A stretch of 64,000 bases of DNA from Candidatus Harpocratesius repetitus (lineage in GTDB: Archaea > Asgardarchaeota > Lokiarchaeia > Sigyniarchaeales > Promethearchaeaceae): NCBI GenBank assembly GCA_021498095.1, contig JAIZWK010000001.1:2405666-2469665 (forward strand), given 5' to 3'. Of this stretch, positions 1 to 10,565 are shown in pieces (the stretch's first letter is position 1; every line of letters starts with the position of its first letter). Position numbers and translations under genes: made by a program. Under the pieces are notes generated by a model. The model saw only the letters and a list, made by a program, of their open reading frames with translations, made no database searches and was not told the DNA's origin.

Positions 1-453
1 CACGTACAATTTGAATTTGTTTCTCTACAATTGTAGTTAATCTTTGTTTTTCCTGAGATTTATATAGATATGCCATTGATTCGTTTGTACTTGATCTTTT
101 CGCAGGTACAATGTCAATATGATATCCTTCACGTTTTTCAATTCTAATAGCAATATTCTTTTGATATGCATTAGGTTCAACGAAAAGTATATAATCTTTA
201 ACAATCATATAAATCTCTTCCAAAAGATGAGGATCATCAAAAGGAAAGTTGCATAAAATATCAATATCATATGAACATTTAATCAGTGTTTTTTTCCATA
301 TGATCCCCCCCAATAATAACTAGGACGAGATAATTCTTTGATTTGATTATTTAAAATTTCAAAATAGTCTCGATCTTGACGCATTTCTTTTTGTTCTTTT
401 TTGCTGATTTTTTATATTTTTACTAGTTCTTTTAGATAATCGGTAATTGCCAT
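1..453 (-). pseudogene. decayed CD-NTase-like nucleotidyltransferase (truncated at window edge)
   Basis: Reverse-strand translation with one in-frame TAA (412-414) and one frameshift at a 7-T run (289-295) reads MAITDYLKELVKI*KISKKEQKEMRQDRDYFEILNNQIKELSRPSYYWGGSYGKK/TLIKCSYDIDILCNF...GYHIDIVPAKRSSTNESMAYLYKSQEKQ; GS(x)nDxD and hDhVP nucleotidyltransferase motifs. Confidence 0.7.
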
Positions 454-534
454 TTCAAATCATCTAATTAGCCATTAACTATATATAATAATCGTTCTTT
501 AAAAATATCATCATTAAACAAAGAGAAAATATTC

Positions 535-1686
535 ATGTCAAAATATCCAACTCCTGCTACTAAGCTTAAAATTACAGCCGATCATGGTGGAAAATGTGCG
601 CTGTGTGGTTTAGGAGGAAAAAAGGTTTATACCAATTCAAAAGAAGAAAACCAGTTGGATTCATTTAATATTGGACAATTTGCTCACATTTATTCTGAAA
701 ATGAAAAAGGACCGCGCTATGATAAGAAGATTCCAGAGTCATTTCTTGCTTCTAAAGAAAATTTCTTGCTCTTATGTACAAATCATCATAATTATATTGA
801 TCAAAATGTGAAAAAGTTTCCCGCTAAAAAATTGAAAAAAATTCGAGAAAATCATGTTGGAAATGTAAGAAAACGTTTGGATTTGAAGGTAATAGAAAGA
901 GTGATTATTATCTTGTTAAGGGATGACTACTTTGGAGGATTGAACACCAGTACCATTCAAAATACTCTTTCTGAAAGTGAAGTAGTTGTTAATTATTTAG
1001 ATTTTCGAACGCAAACCCAAAATTCATCTGAAATTCCATGGCAAGAAGGTTTTCAATATTATACTAATAAATGGAATGAGTTTAAGACAGATTTCTTTGA
1101 AGATTTGAAATCCTCGATAGACTGTTTTCATATTTACGGTATCACTCAAATTCCCTATGTATTCTTTTTTGGATTGTTTTTCAATGATACCCCAAAATTA
1201 TTTGCTCATCAATGGAATCGAGAAAAAAATAAATGGGAAGGTTTTTCTGAAACGGCTCAAAATGATGTTTTCACATCCTCAATAGAAATTCACGATACAA
1301 AGGATATAATTCTAAAAATAGAATTATCGTCAAAAATCAATAACAAAATAATTGAAAAATTAGGCTTGAATCTGAAAAATCAAGCCTCCCTTCAAGTAGA
1401 AGATCCTTCTCGAACTTGGTTAAAATCAATTAACCAAACAGAATCATTCTTAAATCATTACAGGAATTTGATGGATGAAATTAAAGAACGATTACCAGAA
1501 TCGGAAATTCATCTTTTTTATGCCGGACCTGTTCCACCTTTATTCCATATGGCTTCTGCTTATAATCCCCGAATGGATCGACCAATAAATATTTATTATT
1601 ATTTTGTCAATCCTGAAACTAAACTCTCAGAATACAAATTTGTATTTAATTCTGTAGAGATCATGCAAAAATACAATTTTCTTTAG
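535..1686 (+). CDS. HNH endonuclease - SAVED domain protein (Cap5-like CBASS effector)
   Basis: N-terminal CALCG...FAHIYSEN...LLCTNHHNYID HNH pattern; C-terminal SAVED-like segment EIHLFYAGPVPPLFHMASAYNPRMDRPINIYYYFVN. Confidence 0.8.
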   Translation: MSKYPTPATKLKITADHGGKCALCGLGGKKVYTNSKEENQLDSFNIGQFAHIYSENEKGPRYDKKIPESFLASKENFLLLCTNHHNYIDQNVKKFPAKKLKKIRENHVGNVRKRLDLKVIERVIIILLRDDYFGGLNTSTIQNTLSESEVVVNYLDFRTQTQNSSEIPWQEGFQYYTNKWNEFKTDFFEDLKSSIDCFHIYGITQIPYVFFFGLFFNDTPKLFAHQWNREKNKWEGFSETAQNDVFTSSIEIHDTKDIILKIELSSKINNKIIEKLGLNLKNQASLQVEDPSRTWLKSINQTESFLNHYRNLMDEIKERLPESEIHLFYAGPVPPLFHMASAYNPRMDRPINIYYYFVNPETKLSEYKFVFNSVEIMQKYNFL

Positions 1687-1705
1687 AGTAGCAAATCTCC
1701 AATTC

Positions 1706-2473
1706 TCATCTCTGTTTCTTAAAGATCTCACCCCAATATGTGCGATTTAATGCTTGATATGCTTTCTGCTCAATCTCCTTTTTTTCTCTGGAAGTTAAAT
1801 TATCAGTCACAATATTCTGTTTATTTGCGGGATCATAATATTCTCGATCGCAAATATTTCGAGCGATATATTCTAAACATGTTTCTAATTGGATAGAAAG
1901 AGAAGTTCTTGTTATATTCCAACAAGCTAAATGAACCATGATTTCGAGTAAGAATGTAGAGATAGGAACGTTTTTCCGGAATTTCCAGAGTTTTAGCAGA
2001 CGAATTACATCTCTTCGATTATATTTCTCAATTTCATTGATATGTCGATTTAAACTGGTTCGTAAATATTGTTCCGTTTCAGAATTATAGAGATAAGAAT
2101 AATCCGGATCGTGGGAATCTTGAACAGATGGCACAATATCCACATGAAACGTTTTATTGTATGGCAAACACCATGCCACTTTCTTCTTAATTATTTTATT
2201 CCATTCTAAATGAAGTGCATCTTCAACTTGATAAAAAATCTTTTTTATATCCCCAAAATTAGGTTCCCAGATGAGAAACATATCTAAATCATGATATTCT
2301 TTAATCCAAGTATTTTTCTTGAATGATCCAGCCATAAACATACTTGGATGTCCGCCAATAGAGTCATTAATGCATCTTCTGATCCGATCTCGCAATTTTA
2401 ACATACTATCAATTTGAGATTGAGCTGGGTGACTATTTCTTAAAACCTTGTTGAGGAATTCTTCGTCATTCAT
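1706..2473 (-). CDS. CD-NTase-like nucleotidyltransferase (CBASS cyclic oligonucleotide synthase)
   Basis: MAGSFKKNTWIKEYHDLDMFLIW (GS-x11-DLD) plus FHVDIVPS third acidic residue; RDVIRLLKLWKFRKNVPISTFLLEIMVHLA helical region; convergent with the HNH-SAVED gene, 19 bp apart. Confidence 0.8.
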   Translation of the reverse strand: MNDEEFLNKVLRNSHPAQSQIDSMLKLRDRIRRCINDSIGGHPSMFMAGSFKKNTWIKEYHDLDMFLIWEPNFGDIKKIFYQVEDALHLEWNKIIKKKVAWCLPYNKTFHVDIVPSVQDSHDPDYSYLYNSETEQYLRTSLNRHINEIEKYNRRDVIRLLKLWKFRKNVPISTFLLEIMVHLACWNITRTSLSIQLETCLEYIARNICDREYYDPANKQNIVTDNLTSREKKEIEQKAYQALNRTYWGEIFKKQR

Positions 2474-2639
2474 TTTTATTCTCTTATATTCTTTTCACAT
2501 GATGAATATGTGGATTCCAACTATTACTATCGCGATTGATGTGTATACAAGAATGGTATATATTAATTGAAATATTAATAAGAAAAAACTTGCATTATTT
2601 TTTTGGTAATTGCATTATTTATTGAGTTTTACACAAATC

Positions 2640-3761
2640 TCAAAGGTTTTGGAATACAAGACAATAATGATGGTGAACGTTAGAAATATAGGTAGTTGGA
2701 TAACCCCAGATTCCCATAAATTTCTGATCCTGACACCAAATAAATTCTTGTTTTAGAGATAAGTTCTTTCCAAGGATTTTAGCAAAATCCCAAGCGACTG
2801 GTCTCATATTACCTTCTTTATCGCGAATGTTTTGTAATATAATAATGAAATAACCTTCCTTTTCTACAATTTGAGAGATATTTGAGAATATTTCGCTTAA
2901 ATTATTTAAATACTTATCATAATCATCAATATTACCAAAATCCTTTTCATCATCGCTATATTTCTCATCAAAACCTTGTTCAACCCTCTGTTTTAAAGCA
3001 GATTTTACACCTCCTCTTGATGTTCCTAGCATATTCCAGTAAGGTGGTGATGTAACTACACATTTCATCTTAGGTAACTTCATTTCTTTCCATATTTTAA
3101 CAGTATTTCGACAATCATCATTGATAACGATATATTGTGTTTTTGACTCTTCTTTATTAAAAAATGAATCTAAAGTTTTTTGATTGTCAACAGAACGCTT
3201 TTGTGCATAAGAAGCGTATTCCGGATTTAATTCTATGCCGAAACAATTTCTATCTAAATCTCTACAAGCAACTAAAGTCGAACCAATTCCAAGAAATGGA
3301 TCAAAAACCCAATCACCTTCTTTTGAAAAAAATTCAATGAAATGTCGTGCAAGTGCAGGAGGATAACTTGCAGGATGATTTTTAATTTCTTTAGGAATAT
3401 CTGAAGGTTTTCCATCTACTATAAGCCAACTCTTTGTATGTCTTAACCATTCTTTACCTGTTAGATTGTTTAAAGAGTTTCTTTCATCATATTCCCCTTT
3501 TTTTTCACATTTATATTGAATTTCTCTTGTTTCTTTAGCCAAAAGACGAAACAGTTTAGCACTATTAATAAAATCCCCTTTTTCAAAAAGTTTTCTAGTT
3601 TCATTTACTAAATCGAGTATTTCATTATTCTTTCTATTAATTATATCTGAAGAATTGCTTTTAAAATTAGGATTTTTATCAATCTCATCAAGAATTTCTT
3701 TAGGAATAACCCATCTTTTTTGTTTTCCTTTCTTTTTAGAATTCAACTGGTTTTCACTCAT
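2640..3761 (-). CDS. site-specific DNA methyltransferase (N4-C/N6-A type)
   Basis: DPFLGIGSTLVACRDLDRNCFGIELNPEYA (SAM-binding) and VVTSPPYWNML (catalytic TSPPYW). Confidence 0.88.
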   Translation of the reverse strand: MSENQLNSKKKGKQKRWVIPKEILDEIDKNPNFKSNSSDIINRKNNEILDLVNETRKLFEKGDFINSAKLFRLLAKETREIQYKCEKKGEYDERNSLNNLTGKEWLRHTKSWLIVDGKPSDIPKEIKNHPASYPPALARHFIEFFSKEGDWVFDPFLGIGSTLVACRDLDRNCFGIELNPEYASYAQKRSVDNQKTLDSFFNKEESKTQYIVINDDCRNTVKIWKEMKLPKMKCVVTSPPYWNMLGTSRGGVKSALKQRVEQGFDEKYSDDEKDFGNIDDYDKYLNNLSEIFSNISQIVEKEGYFIIILQNIRDKEGNMRPVAWDFAKILGKNLSLKQEFIWCQDQKFMGIWGYPTTYISNVHHHYCLVFQNL

Positions 3762-5410
3762 AATTCATCCCATGTTTGTCCGCTAAAATAGACAATTCTT
3801 TTGTTTATTTGAATTTTTATAGAACTACATTTTTCTATCACATTTTTATCGACCAAATCTTGATAAATTGTGTCTTCTTCCGTCAATTGCATTGGTAAAT
3901 CTTGAATTTTTATCGTTTTTCCAAAATTTTCATTAATTTTTCTATATAAGGATATTTCTTCTGCACTTTTACTTGTCACAGGTATATATGTTGTTTCATT
4001 TAATTTTGATAGATATTCTTTTCCTTTTTCAGTAATTCCTACTATGGATGTAATTTTGTACCCTCTACTTATAATTTCAATTGGATCAGATAAATTATTT
4101 GGTATTTTATCTATACTTTCGACATTATTGGATTTTTTCCACCCTTGTGTTTCAAGATCAATTAATCCGATTGTAAAAGCCCAACCAAACATCCTTCTTG
4201 TGAAATTGTTTACTCTTTTCTTGTATTTATTATATGTGAGAGGAATATAATCTTTAGTTTTATTGTTCCAAATAATATATTTTTTTTGCAAAATTTTGTT
4301 AATTTCTTTAATCCTTTGTTTTTTATTCGGTATTTCCAATAATCTTTCAACTCCAATCAAAGCATTTCTTAAATTTTCAGGTGTTTCCTGCAAAGTAGTT
4401 AGAATATAAAAACCTAAAAGATATTGATGAATTGAAATATTATAACCTTTTTTTTCAAGCTCATTAAGAATCCAGAGCATGATGTAAAAGGGTCTAGCTT
4501 TCATATACATATATTCGGAATAATTTGTTAAATCTTGCTCACAATTAAAAATACCATAATTTACTATCGATTCAGTTAATAATCGTCGTCTTTCCTTTTC
4601 TTTTTGCGAGATATTTTCAAGAGATTCGTAATTATTATCAATAAAATTTCCATCACAGATAATTTCCCCCTTATTTGTAATTTTATAAGAGTAATTAAAT
4701 GTACCCCCTGATTCGCTTACTTCTCTCGTTTTAGACACTAATCCAATATAATTGGCAAAATCAAGGGAATCCCTTATTTCTTCTTTTGAACCGCGCTTAG
4801 TCTTCGAAGATGCTCTTGGAATAAAACTTATGGGAATATCATAAGTGATTTGTTTTAGTAGAGATAAATTACTTGATATATTACTTATGGTATTGTTATT
4901 CATACAAAAATGGGAAATTAATCTAAAAAATGCTTTAGATTCATATGCATTTTTAGGAAAATGCAAAAATGCAAGATTTACTCTTTTATCTGTGTTCTTT
5001 TGCCTATATCTTGGCATATATAGTACTTCAAAAGGATTTGTATATTCAAAAGAATTAAATTTAAAATTATTAAAAAATTTACATATTTCAGAATATATAA
5101 ACGGAGGAAGTGCATCTTTTTTAATAATTGTTTCAATTGGAGTATAAATTCTACGAACTATTGCGAAATTTTGAGTTTCTTCTTCCCAACAAACAGCATA
5201 CAAATATTCATAAGTCTTTGATCGAAGTTCTTTTCGAATTTCTTTTATTTTTTCGCTATTAATAATATTCGTTGATTTTGATATTACTTGTTCATTAAAA
5301 TCATTCAATTGTATTATATTTCCATTAGTTGGAAAACCCTTCTTTTCAAAAAATTTAATTAAATCATCAGAGGATTTTATCATTTTAAATTTTATTTCTC
5401 TCACCTTCAT
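3758..5410 (-). CDS. uncharacterised protein of defence operon, 550 aa
   Basis: Intact ORF; ATGA overlap with downstream methylase (3758-3761) and TAATG overlap with upstream helicase (5410). Confidence 0.75.
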   Translation of the reverse strand: MKVREIKFKMIKSSDDLIKFFEKKGFPTNGNIIQLNDFNEQVISKSTNIINSEKIKEIRKELRSKTYEYLYAVCWEEETQNFAIVRRIYTPIETIIKKDALPPFIYSEICKFFNNFKFNSFEYTNPFEVLYMPRYRQKNTDKRVNLAFLHFPKNAYESKAFFRLISHFCMNNNTISNISSNLSLLKQITYDIPISFIPRASSKTKRGSKEEIRDSLDFANYIGLVSKTREVSESGGTFNYSYKITNKGEIICDGNFIDNNYESLENISQKEKERRRLLTESIVNYGIFNCEQDLTNYSEYMYMKARPFYIMLWILNELEKKGYNISIHQYLLGFYILTTLQETPENLRNALIGVERLLEIPNKKQRIKEINKILQKKYIIWNNKTKDYIPLTYNKYKKRVNNFTRRMFGWAFTIGLIDLETQGWKKSNNVESIDKIPNNLSDPIEIISRGYKITSIVGITEKGKEYLSKLNETTYIPVTSKSAEEISLYRKINENFGKTIKIQDLPMQLTEEDTIYQDLVDKNVIEKCSSIKIQINKRIVYFSGQTWDEL

Positions 5411-8400
5411 TATTTTCTAAAAATTATCATGGATTTCATTTCTAATTTAATATCATCATGCTTAAGTAATTTTGATGTGTATTGGGAAAATTTTTCGGTT
5501 TGATTTTCTAAAAACGCATCAAATTTTTGTATTTCCGAAAGAATTTTATATGGATTTGCAGGGGGATTTTTATTTTTATATTTTTCAATTAATTTATTTA
5601 AAATATCTCTATATTCATTAAGTATTATCTTATTCATAGAAAATGAAAGGAAAAGATGGAATTTTTCCCATAATTTTTTCTGCGCTTGTTTTACTGATTC
5701 AATATTGGTAGTATTTAAGAAATCTGTCATTCTTGGATAAAAATACTTTTTCACTAAAGTGTTTAATTCCGTTTTTTTATTTTCGATTGATTTTTCTTTA
5801 ACTGTATATTTCAAACTATACTTTTTTATGATTTCTTCTTTTTCACTTTTAAAAATCTTTTTAATTTTTTCTAGATCAAGATAATCTTGTTCGGATAGTT
5901 TTCTATCTTTATCTTCTTTATCTTCTTTATCAAAATTAATTAAATCATAAATCTTGATAGATTCATCATTAAAGGAATAACTCTTCTTTATATTATAGTA
6001 GAAATTTTTTAAAAATTGTTCGGATTGTAAATAAGTAATAACTTTAGCATTGAGATCTGATTTAAAAATAGTAAAATATTTCTTTCGATATTTTGGAACG
6101 AACAGATCTCTAAGCTTAATACCAAAAACATCTGTCATTTTTATTAGGAATTTGTCTAAATTACTAAATCTTAGGGCAATATCTTCAGAATTTTCTTGTT
6201 GGAAAGATAGATCTGTAATCTTTTTTATTTTATTTATAATTTCACACATGCTATCTCTTTGATTTTGTATTATATCTAATTGTTCTTCAAGTGTAAGAAT
6301 ACAATATTCAGTCCCTATTGCTAGGGCTATATTCTTTATTTTTGATTTGACTTTTGTTAAAAACCTTTCGAGAAATTCAATATTATTATCAGGAATGAAA
6401 TTTGCGACAAATATATCCTTAATATTAGTAATTCGATCAACTCTTCCAATTCTTTGAATCATTTTTACAGGATTCCAAGGAATATCATAATTAATAACCC
6501 AATCTGCTTCTGGGATATTGAACCCTTCGCTCAATACATCAGTAGAAATTAAAAACTGATTTTTTTTTTCCATTTTAAATAATTCTAAAACATTAAAACG
6601 CTCAGGTTTAGATAATGCTCCGGTTATCAATAAAGAATTTTCTATGTTATCATGTAGATAATGTGCAGTATCTGCATATTGAGTGAAAATTAGGAATTTA
6701 GTATCTGAATGTTTCAAATTGTATCCTTCAAATTTAATCAGTAATCCTGGATTCGAAAGGAATGTTTTTAACAAGAGTATTTTTTCATCAATTTTGAAAA
6801 CATTTGATAGTTTCATTCTTTTTTCTTTATTAATTTCTTGCTGGAAGTTATTTTCTTTAAAAACTAAATAATTTAAGATATTTAGGATATAATCGTATTT
6901 ATCAAGAATTTTATCAAAATCAGTTAATTTTTTAATAGTATTTATAATTTTTTCCATTTTTTTCTTAAAGTTATCATTATTTTCTCTGATTTCTGATAAA
7001 ATATTCTTATACCCGCTACCTAATATTAATTCTATTAAAAATAATTCATTATCAATGAAATAATATATTTTATCATCTGAAATATTTTTAATATTAAATA
7101 GCATATTTTTAATTAAATTCAAATCGTAAAATATTTTAGAGATAACCATAGATAGTTCATCTTCATCTAATTTCAGCAATTCAATCCATTTTTCTGAGAT
7201 TTGGTTCAAATCAAATTCTTCATTTTCATCTTCTTTTAAATTAATTAGAATTTTATCTAAAAGGGTCTTCTGTTCTAAAAATTTAATATTTCCATTATCA
7301 ATATCTTCTTCTTTTTCTTTCTCGTCCTTGCTTTCATGAATTCTATAATGAAAAGAAGAGTATATAAAAATTAAAATCGTCATTTCCGACAATAATAAGT
7401 TTGATATTGAAGTAAAAAAGGAATAGGGAGAACTTTCCAATCTTTTTGCTAAAAAAATGTAATAGAATGTGTGAAATTGAGTATCATCTTTTAATGGATC
7501 AACATGAGGTAAATTTAGGTCCACAATCATATCTCTAGTTTCTTTGAAGAGCGAAGAAAATGATGGATTTTGAATTTTGTATTCAAGAGGTTGTAAAATT
7601 GGATCTTTTATACTAACATCATTATTTTTTATTTGATAATATTCTTTTTTCATCTTTTTCAAATCAAGTCTACTTGTTTGAACAAATAGTGCTTTTCTTA
7701 TCTTTTTTATTTGTTCCTTTTGAGACAACATAATATCTTGATTCATTAAGAGAAATGCTGAAAGTTCATCTTCATTTGTAATTTTCCTCATTGGATTCTC
7801 TATTTTTTTTACAAATTCTGATAATTGGTGATATTCAGCTTCAATATCATTCTGCTTAAATTGATTTTCATCATGGAATATTGATATGATATTATAGATA
7901 TCTATATAGGAATTATTCATAGGGGTTGCTGTTAATAAAATGAATTTCGTCCCAATTTTGGGAATTTTAATCAAATTTTTATAACGATTTGATGTATTGT
8001 TTCTAAAATTATGAACTTCATCTATTAAAACCACATCATAATGTTTATTTATTTCAAAATCTGAAATTCCAAATGAATACATTGAAATAATATCGATTCG
8101 ATGGTCTAAAGGTGATATTTGAAACTCTCTTAGATAATCTTCCCATTGTTTAATAATCCCTGGTGGTAAAATTAATAAAATTTTTATTTCTTTATAGATC
8201 AAATAGTCTGCAAGCAATTTACAAGCGATATAACTCTTTCCAAGCCCCACTGAACTTGTAATCATAACTCCATTAAAATTCTTCAAAATTTCTTTAGCTC
8301 GTTGATAATCTACTTTCTGAAATGGCAATAATTCAATTTTCTCTTCAAGTAAGTATTCTTTGTTCCAATCTAAAATTTGTTGGATTATGAATTTTTTTGG

Positions 8401-9123
8401 ATGAAAATATTTCCATTCTACTTTTTTTTTTTTTTTTTTAAATTTCGGTGTTGATTCGATAATTCGCAAGATTTTATCATTATAGTCTTGTGAAGATTGC
8501 CACAATTCATGAAAATAATTTGTTAGCCACTGATTCTCTTCCTTAGAATTAAAAACGGCATTTAATTCCACATTAGTTCTTAAACCTGATGTAGATAAAT
8601 TAGAAGAGCCGAAAATCCCTTTATCATCTAAAGTACCACCAAATTCTTCAGGTAAAACCCTATGAAATAAATATAGTTTTGTATGAAGTTTAGATTGGTC
8701 AAAAATTTTCACTTTTATTATCCCATCTTGAATATTTTCGTAAAATGAGATTAATCCATCAAAATTTTTATCTGATAATGAAATGATTTCATCTTTAATC
8801 TTAGAATACAAGGTTTTACTATTATACCTAGGAATATGAGAATATTTCAATGTCGATTTTGTAAGTTTATCGGTGTGATCTCCGATAATCAATAAAAATG
8901 GTGCTGAAGTTCCATAAAGTTCGATATAAGATTCATTATCGATACGATTTAAATTGATTTTTTCATATATTTCATTATAACCGGATAAAAAAAAGAACCC
9001 AGTTGCAATTTTCACTTCTTTACAACCTTGTAAATATTTTTTTATCACATCCCCTAATTTGATTTTTCTATTATCGATAAAAGTTGGAATATCAATTAAT
9101 TCAGAATTTACTTTTGAATTCAT
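5410..9123 (-). CDS. PLD-like (HKD) nuclease fused to SNF2/SF2 helicase
   Basis: KLHTKLYLFHR...GIFGSSNLSTSGLRTNVELN (PLD/HKD); MITSSVGLGKSYIA (Walker A), VVLIDEVHNFRN (DEVH), LLTATPMNN, STDVLSEGFNIPEADWVINYDIPWNPVKMIQRIGRVDRI (motifs V/VI). Confidence 0.88.
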   Translation of the reverse strand: MNSKVNSELIDIPTFIDNRKIKLGDVIKKYLQGCKEVKIATGFFFLSGYNEIYEKINLNRIDNESYIELYGTSAPFLLIIGDHTDKLTKSTLKYSHIPRYNSKTLYSKIKDEIISLSDKNFDGLISFYENIQDGIIKVKIFDQSKLHTKLYLFHRVLPEEFGGTLDDKGIFGSSNLSTSGLRTNVELNAVFNSKEENQWLTNYFHELWQSSQDYNDKILRIIESTPKFKKKKKKVEWKYFHPKKFIIQQILDWNKEYLLEEKIELLPFQKVDYQRAKEILKNFNGVMITSSVGLGKSYIACKLLADYLIYKEIKILLILPPGIIKQWEDYLREFQISPLDHRIDIISMYSFGISDFEINKHYDVVLIDEVHNFRNNTSNRYKNLIKIPKIGTKFILLTATPMNNSYIDIYNIISIFHDENQFKQNDIEAEYHQLSEFVKKIENPMRKITNEDELSAFLLMNQDIMLSQKEQIKKIRKALFVQTSRLDLKKMKKEYYQIKNNDVSIKDPILQPLEYKIQNPSFSSLFKETRDMIVDLNLPHVDPLKDDTQFHTFYYIFLAKRLESSPYSFFTSISNLLLSEMTILIFIYSSFHYRIHESKDEKEKEEDIDNGNIKFLEQKTLLDKILINLKEDENEEFDLNQISEKWIELLKLDEDELSMVISKIFYDLNLIKNMLFNIKNISDDKIYYFIDNELFLIELILGSGYKNILSEIRENNDNFKKKMEKIINTIKKLTDFDKILDKYDYILNILNYLVFKENNFQQEINKEKRMKLSNVFKIDEKILLLKTFLSNPGLLIKFEGYNLKHSDTKFLIFTQYADTAHYLHDNIENSLLITGALSKPERFNVLELFKMEKKNQFLISTDVLSEGFNIPEADWVINYDIPWNPVKMIQRIGRVDRITNIKDIFVANFIPDNNIEFLERFLTKVKSKIKNIALAIGTEYCILTLEEQLDIIQNQRDSMCEIINKIKKITDLSFQQENSEDIALRFSNLDKFLIKMTDVFGIKLRDLFVPKYRKKYFTIFKSDLNAKVITYLQSEQFLKNFYYNIKKSYSFNDESIKIYDLINFDKEDKEDKDRKLSEQDYLDLEKIKKIFKSEKEEIIKKYSLKYTVKEKSIENKKTELNTLVKKYFYPRMTDFLNTTNIESVKQAQKKLWEKFHLFLSFSMNKIILNEYRDILNKLIEKYKNKNPPANPYKILSEIQKFDAFLENQTEKFSQYTSKLLKHDDIKLEMKSMIIFRK
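8422..8439 (-). repeat. homopolymer A18 (coding strand) inside helicase ORF
   Basis: 18 consecutive T on + strand, read as six AAA Lys codons (KFKKKKKKVEW). Confidence 0.95.
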
Positions 9124-10109
9124 TTATTTCACATTTTTAATTGGAGCGATATTATCCTTTATTTCTTATTTCTTTAAAGTCTTACTTTGGCTTCTTCTCT
9201 TTATAATAACATTATTTTACATTCAATTCAGAGATTTGATCTAACATTAATTGAAATATCTCTCTCTTCGTTGTTTTGGTCAAATAATCTATCATTATTT
9301 TTCTATACTGATATATTCGACGTTAAATTATTTACATTTAAATTTAGAAAAAAAACTCTCACATCCATCTAATTTCGGAAGTAAAACAGATTCCAATTGA
9401 ATCTTATAACCAATTTCTTAAAATAATGATACAAATGCAAAAATATTTTTGAATTTTTGGTTGTCATCTTAAATCATTTTAACTTATTTTTAATGATATA
9501 TGTTGACAAAATCCGATTTAATTGTTATAATAAATCAATGCAGAGAAATTGCTTATTTTTAAATAACTTGATAAAACCATATCAAATCATTATATGGAAT
9601 GATATATATGGAAAATTCTAAGTAAAAAAATAAGCTAGTCAGTTAAGAGAAGTTAAACCATCCCCCGTTTCTTTTCGCACCATCAGATATTCAGAAAAAC
9701 AAAAAATGCAAGGAATTATTTTAGAATTTTATCATAATTACCGGAGTAATACATTAACCTATCTAAATTGCTTGGGTGGGGAATCCCTTTTAGAAGATTG
9801 CTTGATGGTGCTACTCGAACACTCACAAGAAGTTATAAAGTACCTTCCATAAGCAAATCCGATTTCAGAAAATAAAGAAACGAAAAAATTAGAATATAAA
9901 CTTCATAAATTTCAAACCTTGAAAAAAAGGGAAATAAGATAATTCTTACTTTGATTTGAAAATTCATCAATTTTTGGTTTAAAATCAAAAATTAATTACT
10001 CAAACTCATAAAATTTTTTTTATATGAAACATTATTGCTTTCAACTACTGTAAAATATTCTTATCTTTATTATTATTTTACATGGTTTTAAACATAATTG
10101 GTGAACATT

Positions 10110-10565
10110 TTGGCTCGAATGCATTCACGTAAGAAAGGAAGTTCGGGGTCTACTCGACCAGCAAAGCTAGAAATTTTGCCATGGTTCCCTCACAATGCCG
10201 AAGAAGTTGAAGCAAAAGTCATCGAATTGGCAAGGAAGGGGGAGTCCATGTCTCGGATCGGAATTGAGCTTCGAGATAGTTTTGGTACACCCTTAGTAAA
10301 AATAATTACTGGAAAGAAGATTTCCCAAATATTGCGGGAAAATGATCTTCTTCCGAAGATTCCTGAAGATGTGCTATTTTTGTCGCGAAAAGCGGTAAAT
10401 ATCCGCCATCATTTAGAAGAGAATAAGAAAGATTTAGAAGCCCGAAAGGGATTAAATCGGACAGAATCGAAAATACGTCGCTTAGTGAAATACTATCGAC
10501 GGAAGGGAGTGTTGCCCCCTGATTTTAAGTATGATCCGGAGAAGATCAAGATTTTCCTCCGATAA
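10110..10565 (+). CDS. rps15: 30S ribosomal protein uS15 (S15), archaeal
   Basis: ARMHSRKKGSSGSTRP...WFPHNAEEVEAKVIELARKGESMSRIGIELRDSFGTPLVK; likely TTG start at 10110 (MARMHSRKKG) rather than the track's 10098. Confidence 0.95.
   Translation: MARMHSRKKGSSGSTRPAKLEILPWFPHNAEEVEAKVIELARKGESMSRIGIELRDSFGTPLVKIITGKKISQILRENDLLPKIPEDVLFLSRKAVNIRHHLEENKKDLEARKGLNRTESKIRRLVKYYRRKGVLPPDFKYDPEKIKIFLR

What the first reader, a model, noticed from the sequence alone, without database searches (positions are those of the whole stretch)
2640..9123. Coupled PLD-nuclease/SNF2-helicase + unknown 550-aa + DNA methylase operon
Three minus-strand genes with TAATG and ATGA overlaps form one transcription unit next to CBASS. 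Helicase, PLD nuclease and methylase are the ingredients of DISARM-like or R-M-like systems. Here, however, PLD and helicase are one 1237-aa protein, there is no DUF1998-type gene, and the middle 550-aa protein has no family I recognise. It may be an undescribed variant restriction system.
Basis: partly seen in the sequence, partly recalled or inferred. Interest (0 to 1): 0.65.

Follow-up and report, generated by a model that had tools for sequence, protein, structure and literature searches.

The report
Archaeal restriction operon with swapped partner
An archaeal DNA-cutting motor that elsewhere almost always comes with one big DNA-marking enzyme is here coupled to a previously unseen 550-residue protein and a small borrowed DNA-marking enzyme, most likely a rebuilt restriction-modification defence against foreign DNA.

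Summary
Three minus-strand genes overlap (TAATG, ATGA) and encode a PLD-SNF2 protein (1237 aa), a 550-aa protein without any family match, and an N6/N4 DNA methylase (373 aa). The PLD-helicase fusion itself is not new. It is the 'HKD+Snf2' family, and in 107 of 123 catalytic-motif-positive loci that I collected it lies within 6 kb of one large (~1050-1250 aa) Eco57I-type methylase. The window's helicase groups with archaeal members of that two-gene system, but its large methylase is missing. The first ~90-130 residues of the 550-aa protein are a divergent copy of the missing methylase's N-terminal domain: a profile of that domain, searched against the whole genome, gives this gene as its best hit. 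So the 550-aa protein looks like an adaptor/specificity subunit, and the methylase looks recruited from a common lineage of stand-alone methylases. The exact three-gene set was found nowhere else. An 18-A run, the longest A/T run in the genome, lies between nuclease and helicase; slipping by one base stops translation, so the system may be phase-variable. Best reading: a new variant of an ATP-dependent R-M-like system. It is not DISARM. Function is inferred, not shown.

The parts
5410..9123 (-). PLD nuclease - SNF2-type SF2 helicase fusion, 1237 aa, restriction/translocation subunit (HKD+Snf2 family)
   Evidence: ORF; Pfam; PADLOC PDLC01075 E 2.5e-44; alignment; tree
8494..9123 (-). PLD nuclease domain (about residues 1-210), HxK + GSxN + E active-site motif
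   Evidence: Pfam PLDc_2 128-208; invariant H147, K149, G172, S173, N175, E186
6274..8361 (-). SNF2-like helicase core (about residues 255-950) with long insert between the two RecA halves
   Evidence: Pfam Helicase_C, SNF2-rel_dom, ResIII; invariant motifs
8422..8439 (-). A18 homopolymer (T18 on + strand) inside the gene between nuclease and helicase; candidate slipped-strand phase-variation switch
3758..5410 (-). 550-aa protein, proposed adaptor/specificity subunit; no described family
5006..5410 (-). N-terminal ~90-135 residues of the 550-aa protein: divergent copy of the N-terminal domain of the large Eco57I-type methylase partner
2640..3761 (-). DNA methylase, 373 aa, PF01555 type with motif I (DPFLGIGST, residue 154) before motif IV (TSPPYW, residue 237); modification subunit, probably recruited from a stand-alone methylase lineage
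3276..3302 (-). methylase motif I, DPFLGIGST (SAM binding)
3036..3053 (-). methylase motif IV, TSPPYW (catalytic)

Best explanation
An ATP-dependent restriction-modification-like system, derived from the two-gene 'PLD-SNF2 helicase + large Eco57I-type methylase/specificity protein' system by replacement of the methylase half. The PLD-SNF2 protein would be the cutting motor: a PLD dimer forms the nuclease site and the SNF2 part hydrolyses ATP on DNA. The 550-aa protein would be the specificity/adaptor subunit: its N-terminal domain, inherited from the lost large methylase, docks on the motor, and its remaining ~400 residues read the DNA site. The small methylase marks the same site in the host. 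Unmarked incoming DNA is then engaged and cut. An A18 tract between nuclease and helicase may switch the motor on and off. Shown: gene order, domains, intact motifs, family linkage elsewhere, absence of the large methylase here, N-terminal similarity of the 550-aa protein to it, and the A18 run. Inferred: complex formation, site recognition by the 550-aa protein, that methylase and nuclease share a site, cutting, and switching.
For: Operon structure. Helicase family and intact motifs. In 107 of 123 HKD-positive loci a large Eco57I-type methylase lies within 6 kb, in 77 within 400 bp. The window helicase groups with archaeal two-gene members (SH-aLRT 97 with four rows, 99 with thirteen). The 550-aa N-terminus matches the N-terminal domain of those methylases: 14.4 bits, E 0.0012 against 702 other ORFs, above all 1000 shuffles; an alignment made without the window protein finds this gene as best hit in its whole 4.36-Mb genome, E 0.005, runner-up 0.14; hhalign P 0.0006; above all 2000 shuffles and all non-methylase N-termini. 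Restriction-like use of the family: a Lactococcus plasmid pairs helicase and methylase with an inverted TaqI_C specificity fragment and an Mpi-type invertase. The PLD domain of a relative hits RE_NgoFVII. CglI/NgoAVII show that PLD plus SF2 ATPase restriction works (PMC4267653).
Against: The three-gene set is known from one genome only, so co-evolution of its parts cannot be tested. The N-terminal similarity is statistically modest and rests on one sequence. No structure supports it (AF2 pLDDT 34 for the whole protein, 51 for the N-terminus with seven rows; Foldseek no match). DNA recognition by residues ~150-550 is a guess from sequence appearance; a direct test against RE_AlwI found nothing, but its control was empty too. 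The methylase's recognition site is unknown. The A18 length could be an assembly error.
Confidence: 0.55

Rival explanations
1. A decaying two-gene system: the large methylase degenerated to a remnant (the 550-aa gene keeps its N-terminal domain), the nearby small methylase is a chance or protective neighbour, and the A18 run is a sign of decay.
For: The similarity covers only the N-terminus; the methylase core and TaqI_C-type region are absent; the helicase branch is long (1.32); an A18 run in a coding frame is unusual.
Against: All three frames are open over 1237, 550 and 373 codons with tight start/stop overlaps and intact PLD, helicase and methylase motifs; the 400 C-terminal residues of the 550-aa protein form a continuous open frame rather than a scrambled methylase.
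Confidence: 0.17
2. Two co-located units: the 550-aa protein and the methylase form a Type II-like R-M pair (550 aa = restriction endonuclease), and the PLD-SNF2 protein acts alone, for example as a SauUSI-like or accessory nuclease.
For: A methylase next to a rapidly evolving ORFan is typical of Type II R-M (own knowledge); the relatives of this methylase are not linked to PLD-SNF2 genes.
Against: No nuclease motif was seen in the 550-aa protein and no Pfam, PADLOC or NCBIfam endonuclease match; its N-terminus matches the helicase partner's N-terminal domain, which ties it to the helicase; overlaps join all three genes.
Confidence: 0.15
3. A DISARM or BREX-related (BR type 2) variant.
For: Weak helicase-domain matches to DrmD and HmaA; BR type 2 has an HKD-Swi2/Snf2 helicase plus N6-methylase (PMC12839542).
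Against: No DrmA, DrmB (DUF1998), DUF499, DUF1156 or DUF3780 gene among the genes scanned; best family is HKD+Snf2; the DrmD hit is far below the NCBIfam cut-off (104 against 610 bits).
Confidence: 0.05
4. A modification-dependent (Type IV-like) nuclease: the helicase-nuclease with the 550-aa reader attacks modified phage DNA, and the methylase has another role (for example mismatch-repair linked or regulatory).
For: SauUSI is a PLD-SF2-reader enzyme of that kind (PMC7913695); some close methylase relatives lie next to MutS.
Against: No SRA or other known reader domain; the family elsewhere is paired with methylases, which suggests protection of self.
Confidence: 0.08

Closest known systems
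HKD+Snf2 (PADLOC PDLC01075) helicases paired with a large Eco57I-type methylase: the two-gene system of haloarchaea, methanogens, Lactobacillales and many MAGs
   Same: PLD-SNF2 fusion with the same order and invariant motifs; DNA methylase next door; the N-terminal domain of its methylase is recognisable in the 550-aa protein
   Different: The ~1050-1250-aa methylase (often with a TaqI_C-type specificity end) is absent; a 550-aa protein plus a 373-aa methylase of another class take its place
CglI / NgoAVII R-M (PMC4267653)
   Same: PLD nuclease, SF2 ATPase and separate methylase; three genes; ATP-dependent cutting is the proposed mode
   Different: There the PLD is fused to a B3 DNA-binding domain and the helicase is separate with a Z1 domain; the methylase is a C5 enzyme
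SauUSI Type IV enzyme (PMC7913695)
   Same: N-terminal PLD followed by SF2 ATPase in one chain
   Different: C-terminal SRA reader of 5mC and no methylase; no SRA domain detected here
BREX-related type 2 systems (PMC12839542)
   Same: HKD endonuclease at the N-terminus of a Swi2/Snf2 helicase; DNA methylase
   Different: They carry a DUF499 ATPase, an N6-methylase of their own kind and DUF3780; none is present here
DISARM
   Same: PLD, SNF2-like helicase and methylase activities in one locus
   Different: Separate PLD (DrmC), DrmA helicase and DrmB (DUF1998) define it; none is here

Membership tests
HKD+Snf2 helicase family | PLD (HKD) domain fused N-terminal to SNF2-type helicase, motifs intact | tested here: met
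   PADLOC E 2.5e-44, best stretch residues 15-827; invariant motifs; tree
two-gene HKD+Snf2 / Eco57I-methylase system | adjacent large Eco57I-type methylase | tested here: not met
   Operon holds a 550-aa protein and a 373-aa PF01555 methylase instead; 107 of 123 other loci do have it
two-gene HKD+Snf2 / Eco57I-methylase system | N-terminal domain of the archaeal-clade methylase partner | tested here: met
   Found at residues ~7-96 of the 550-aa protein; modest significance
CglI/NgoAVII R-M | PLD-B3 endonuclease separate from DEAD-Z1 ATPase | tested here: not met
   PLD and helicase are one chain; no B3 or Z1 match
CglI/NgoAVII R-M | C5 cytosine methylase | tested here: not met
   PF01555 N6/N4 methylase with TSPPYW
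DISARM | DrmA helicase, DrmB (DUF1998), DrmC stand-alone PLD | tested here: not met
   No such match in the operon or the flanking genes scanned; DrmD match only at domain level
BREX-related type 2 | DUF499 ATPase, DUF3780, its own N6-methylase (DUF1156, own knowledge) | tested here: not met
   No match in the three genes and CBASS neighbours scanned
SauUSI-like Type IV | C-terminal SRA-type reader on the PLD-SF2 chain | tested here: not met
   No SRA match in the 1237-aa protein
Type ISP R-M | nuclease, helicase, methylase and specificity domain in one chain | tested here: not met
   Three separate genes
functional restriction-modification system | methylase protects the site that the nuclease attacks | not testable with these tools
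   Needs methylome and restriction assays

The most novel reading that the evidence does not exclude
A new architecture of ATP-dependent restriction in which specificity has been moved from the methylase into a separate adaptor that both docks on a PLD-SNF2 motor and reads DNA, with the methylase recruited from a stand-alone lineage and the motor phase-varied by the longest A/T homopolymer in an archaeal genome.
Probability: 0.3. Interest if true: 0.7.

Novelty: new variant of a known kind. Interest (0 to 1): 0.5.

Why it matters
It appears to catch a restriction-type system that has swapped its modification and specificity half while keeping its cutting motor, which bears on how new specificities and new R-M types arise. 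It also gives the 550-aa protein a first testable identity (adaptor with the partner methylase's N-terminal domain) and offers a candidate for homopolymer phase variation in an archaeal defence gene.

Tried and rejected
Homologues of the 550-aa protein: none convincing in 228 genomes of its phylum, 398 genomes of the phylum of a Nitrososphaera locus, 394 of the phylum of a Methanoculleus locus (repeated weak hits to P-loop/KaiC-like proteins and one winged-helix-like protein, judged spurious), plasmids, phages, IMG/VR, GTDB r220 contigs (the last two reach close relatives only). AlwI/BstNBI-like recognition domain: suspected from memory, nothing by RE_AlwI in the own genome, but the control was empty too, so not excluded. 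Homology of the whole 550-aa protein to the large methylase: no, only the N-terminus. An all-methylase profile was too diverse and gave weaker, inconclusive scores; the archaeal-clade profile gave the signal. AF2 of the 550-aa protein alone: pLDDT 34, useless. AF2 of its N-terminus with seven rows: pLDDT 51, alpha-beta-beta-alpha-beta-beta order only, no Foldseek match. A large methylase elsewhere in the same genome (near 1.247 Mb) gave no hit to the N-terminal-domain profile and has relatives in other genomes of the family; rejected as the missing partner. Literature search found no paper describing this pairing under the terms tried.
Full report
1. The observation. The window holds three overlapping minus-strand genes at the stated coordinates: a PLD-SNF2 protein (5410-9123, 1237 aa), a 550-aa protein (3758-5410) and a methylase (2640-3761, 373 aa), joined by TAATG and ATGA. 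The first carries PLDc_2, SNF2-related and Helicase_C domains, the last N6_N4_Mtase, and the middle one nothing. PLD and helicase catalytic residues are invariant in an 11-member alignment including the window. The neighbouring ribosomal genes at 10.1-11.5 kb look archaeal to me (uS15, eS1; recognition, not tested), and CBASS genes follow downstream.

2. The helicase is a member of a known family with a regular partner. Its best defence-library match is PADLOC 'HKD+Snf2' (E 2.5e-44). tblastn found relatives on haloarchaeal, methanogen, Thermococcus and Lactobacillales plasmids; the usual neighbour is a ~1150-1200-aa methylase. A survey of viral, GTDB, plasmid and own-phylum loci gave 123 loci with an HKD motif; 107 have a large Eco57I-type methylase within 6 kb, 77 of them within 400 bp, and several of the 16 others end at a contig border (near-duplicates not removed). 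Pfam on examples gives Eco57I, MmeI_Mtase and in several cases a TaqI_C specificity domain. On Lactococcus plasmid pJM1F the pair is followed by an inverted TaqI_C fragment and an Mpi-type invertase, the arrangement expected if recognition is switched by DNA inversion; this supports a restriction-modification role for the family.

3. The window lacks that partner. In the tree the window helicase (long branch) groups with a Methanothermococcus plasmid, a Pacearchaeota MAG and two genomes of its own phylum (SH-aLRT 97), then with haloarchaea and a Leptospiraceae MAG (99); these relatives have the large methylase nearby. The tree is a quick one and the long branch calls for caution.

4. What the 550-aa protein is. 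No homologue was found in about 1000 archaeal genomes, plasmids, phages, IMG/VR or GTDB contigs, so it is effectively known once. Its N-terminus, however, matches the N-terminal domain of the archaeal-clade methylases. A profile of five such domains scores it 14.4 bits, E 0.0012 among 702 ORFs, above every one of 1000 shuffles; ten variants of the profile all ranked it above every shuffle. An alignment built without it (A4) and searched in six frames over the whole 4.36-Mb genome gives this gene as best hit (E 0.005; next 0.14), directly beside the helicase. hhalign gives P 0.0006. A wider profile puts it above 2000 shuffles (the best shuffle was close, 15.3 against 15.9 bits) and above all non-methylase N-termini, E 0.001. 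The alignment can be carried on to about residue 135, but the scored part ends near residue 96. The rest (~150-550) shows no match; one weak hit to a winged-helix-like protein around residues 210-304 is the only hint of DNA binding. Structure prediction was uninformative.

5. The methylase. Relatives at E <= 1e-15 occur in 105 of 224 genomes of the phylum. Motif I (residue 154) precedes motif IV TSPPYW (residue 237), and the Pfam match falls in two stretches, as expected for a permuted enzyme. Close relatives (51-61% identity) with the same N-terminal extension stand apart from PLD-SNF2 genes, some of them next to MutS. Recruitment from this lineage is the simplest reading. TSPPY is commonly seen in m4C enzymes (own knowledge); the modified base is not determined.

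6. A possible switch. Eighteen A (T18 on the plus strand, 8422-8439) lie in codons 229-235, between the nuclease and the helicase. It is the longest A/T run in the genome: only six runs of 15 or more exist, 0.008 of 18 or more are expected per 64 kb by a first-order model, and about 100 homologous genes have at most 9. Loss of one A stops translation directly after the run (234 aa, nuclease domain alone), gain of one at 259 aa. Phase variation is plausible but depends on the assembly being right.

7. Mechanism. The simplest model is an ATP-dependent R-M-like complex: PLD-SNF2 as cutting motor, the 550-aa protein as docking/specificity subunit with the inherited N-terminal domain, and the small methylase as protector. 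It would work like Type I/ISP and CglI/NgoAVII enzymes (PMC4267653) without being a member of either: PLD and helicase are fused, B3 and Z1 domains are missing, and the methylase is not C5. SauUSI (PMC7913695) shares PLD-SF2 but not the SRA reader. DISARM and BR type 2 (PMC12839542) fail on their defining genes. No step of the mechanism has been shown biochemically.

8. Verdict. Real operon, known motor family, new partner arrangement: a new variant of a known kind. Interest 0.5, limited by a single occurrence and by the lack of a structure.

Noticed in passing
window 8422-8439: A18/T18 homopolymer inside the PLD-SNF2 gene, the longest A/T run in the 4.36-Mb genome; candidate phase-variation tract.
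   Followed up: partly
L309 (NZ_CP016750.2), 1737-10230: Lactococcus two-gene system followed by an inverted TaqI_C specificity fragment and an Mpi-type DNA invertase: probable specificity switching by inversion.
   Followed up: no
window 1-2473 and L077 6406-12473: Type II-like CBASS: JAB (Cap3-like), ThiF/E1 (Cap2-like), a SMODS/DncV-type cyclase (289 aa), a second apparently truncated cyclase (L077 9822-10313, matching only part of PDLC00803), a further full-length SMODS cyclase (1706-2473) and a divergent SAVED-HNH effector (535-1686). Looks like a duplicated or partly broken CBASS cassette.
   Followed up: partly
L074 1057-5066; L075 4327-8102: PF01555-type methylases of the window methylase's clade lie directly beside MutS genes in related genomes (a paralogue also lies in the window's own genome, G000:C1 1022924-1024042): possible link between DNA methylation and mismatch repair in these archaea.
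   Followed up: partly
L306 6553-9714 (G000:C1 near 1.247 Mb): Large Eco57I-type methylase (1053 aa) in the same genome with relatives in other genomes of the family, without a PLD-SNF2 neighbour in the 16 kb read.
   Followed up: no
L068 7905-12973: The closest relative of the window methylase (61%) is divergent to a 909-aa N6_Mtase + Type_ISP_C protein without a helicase domain, followed by another SPPYW-type methylase: an unusual Type ISP-like fragment locus.
   Followed up: no
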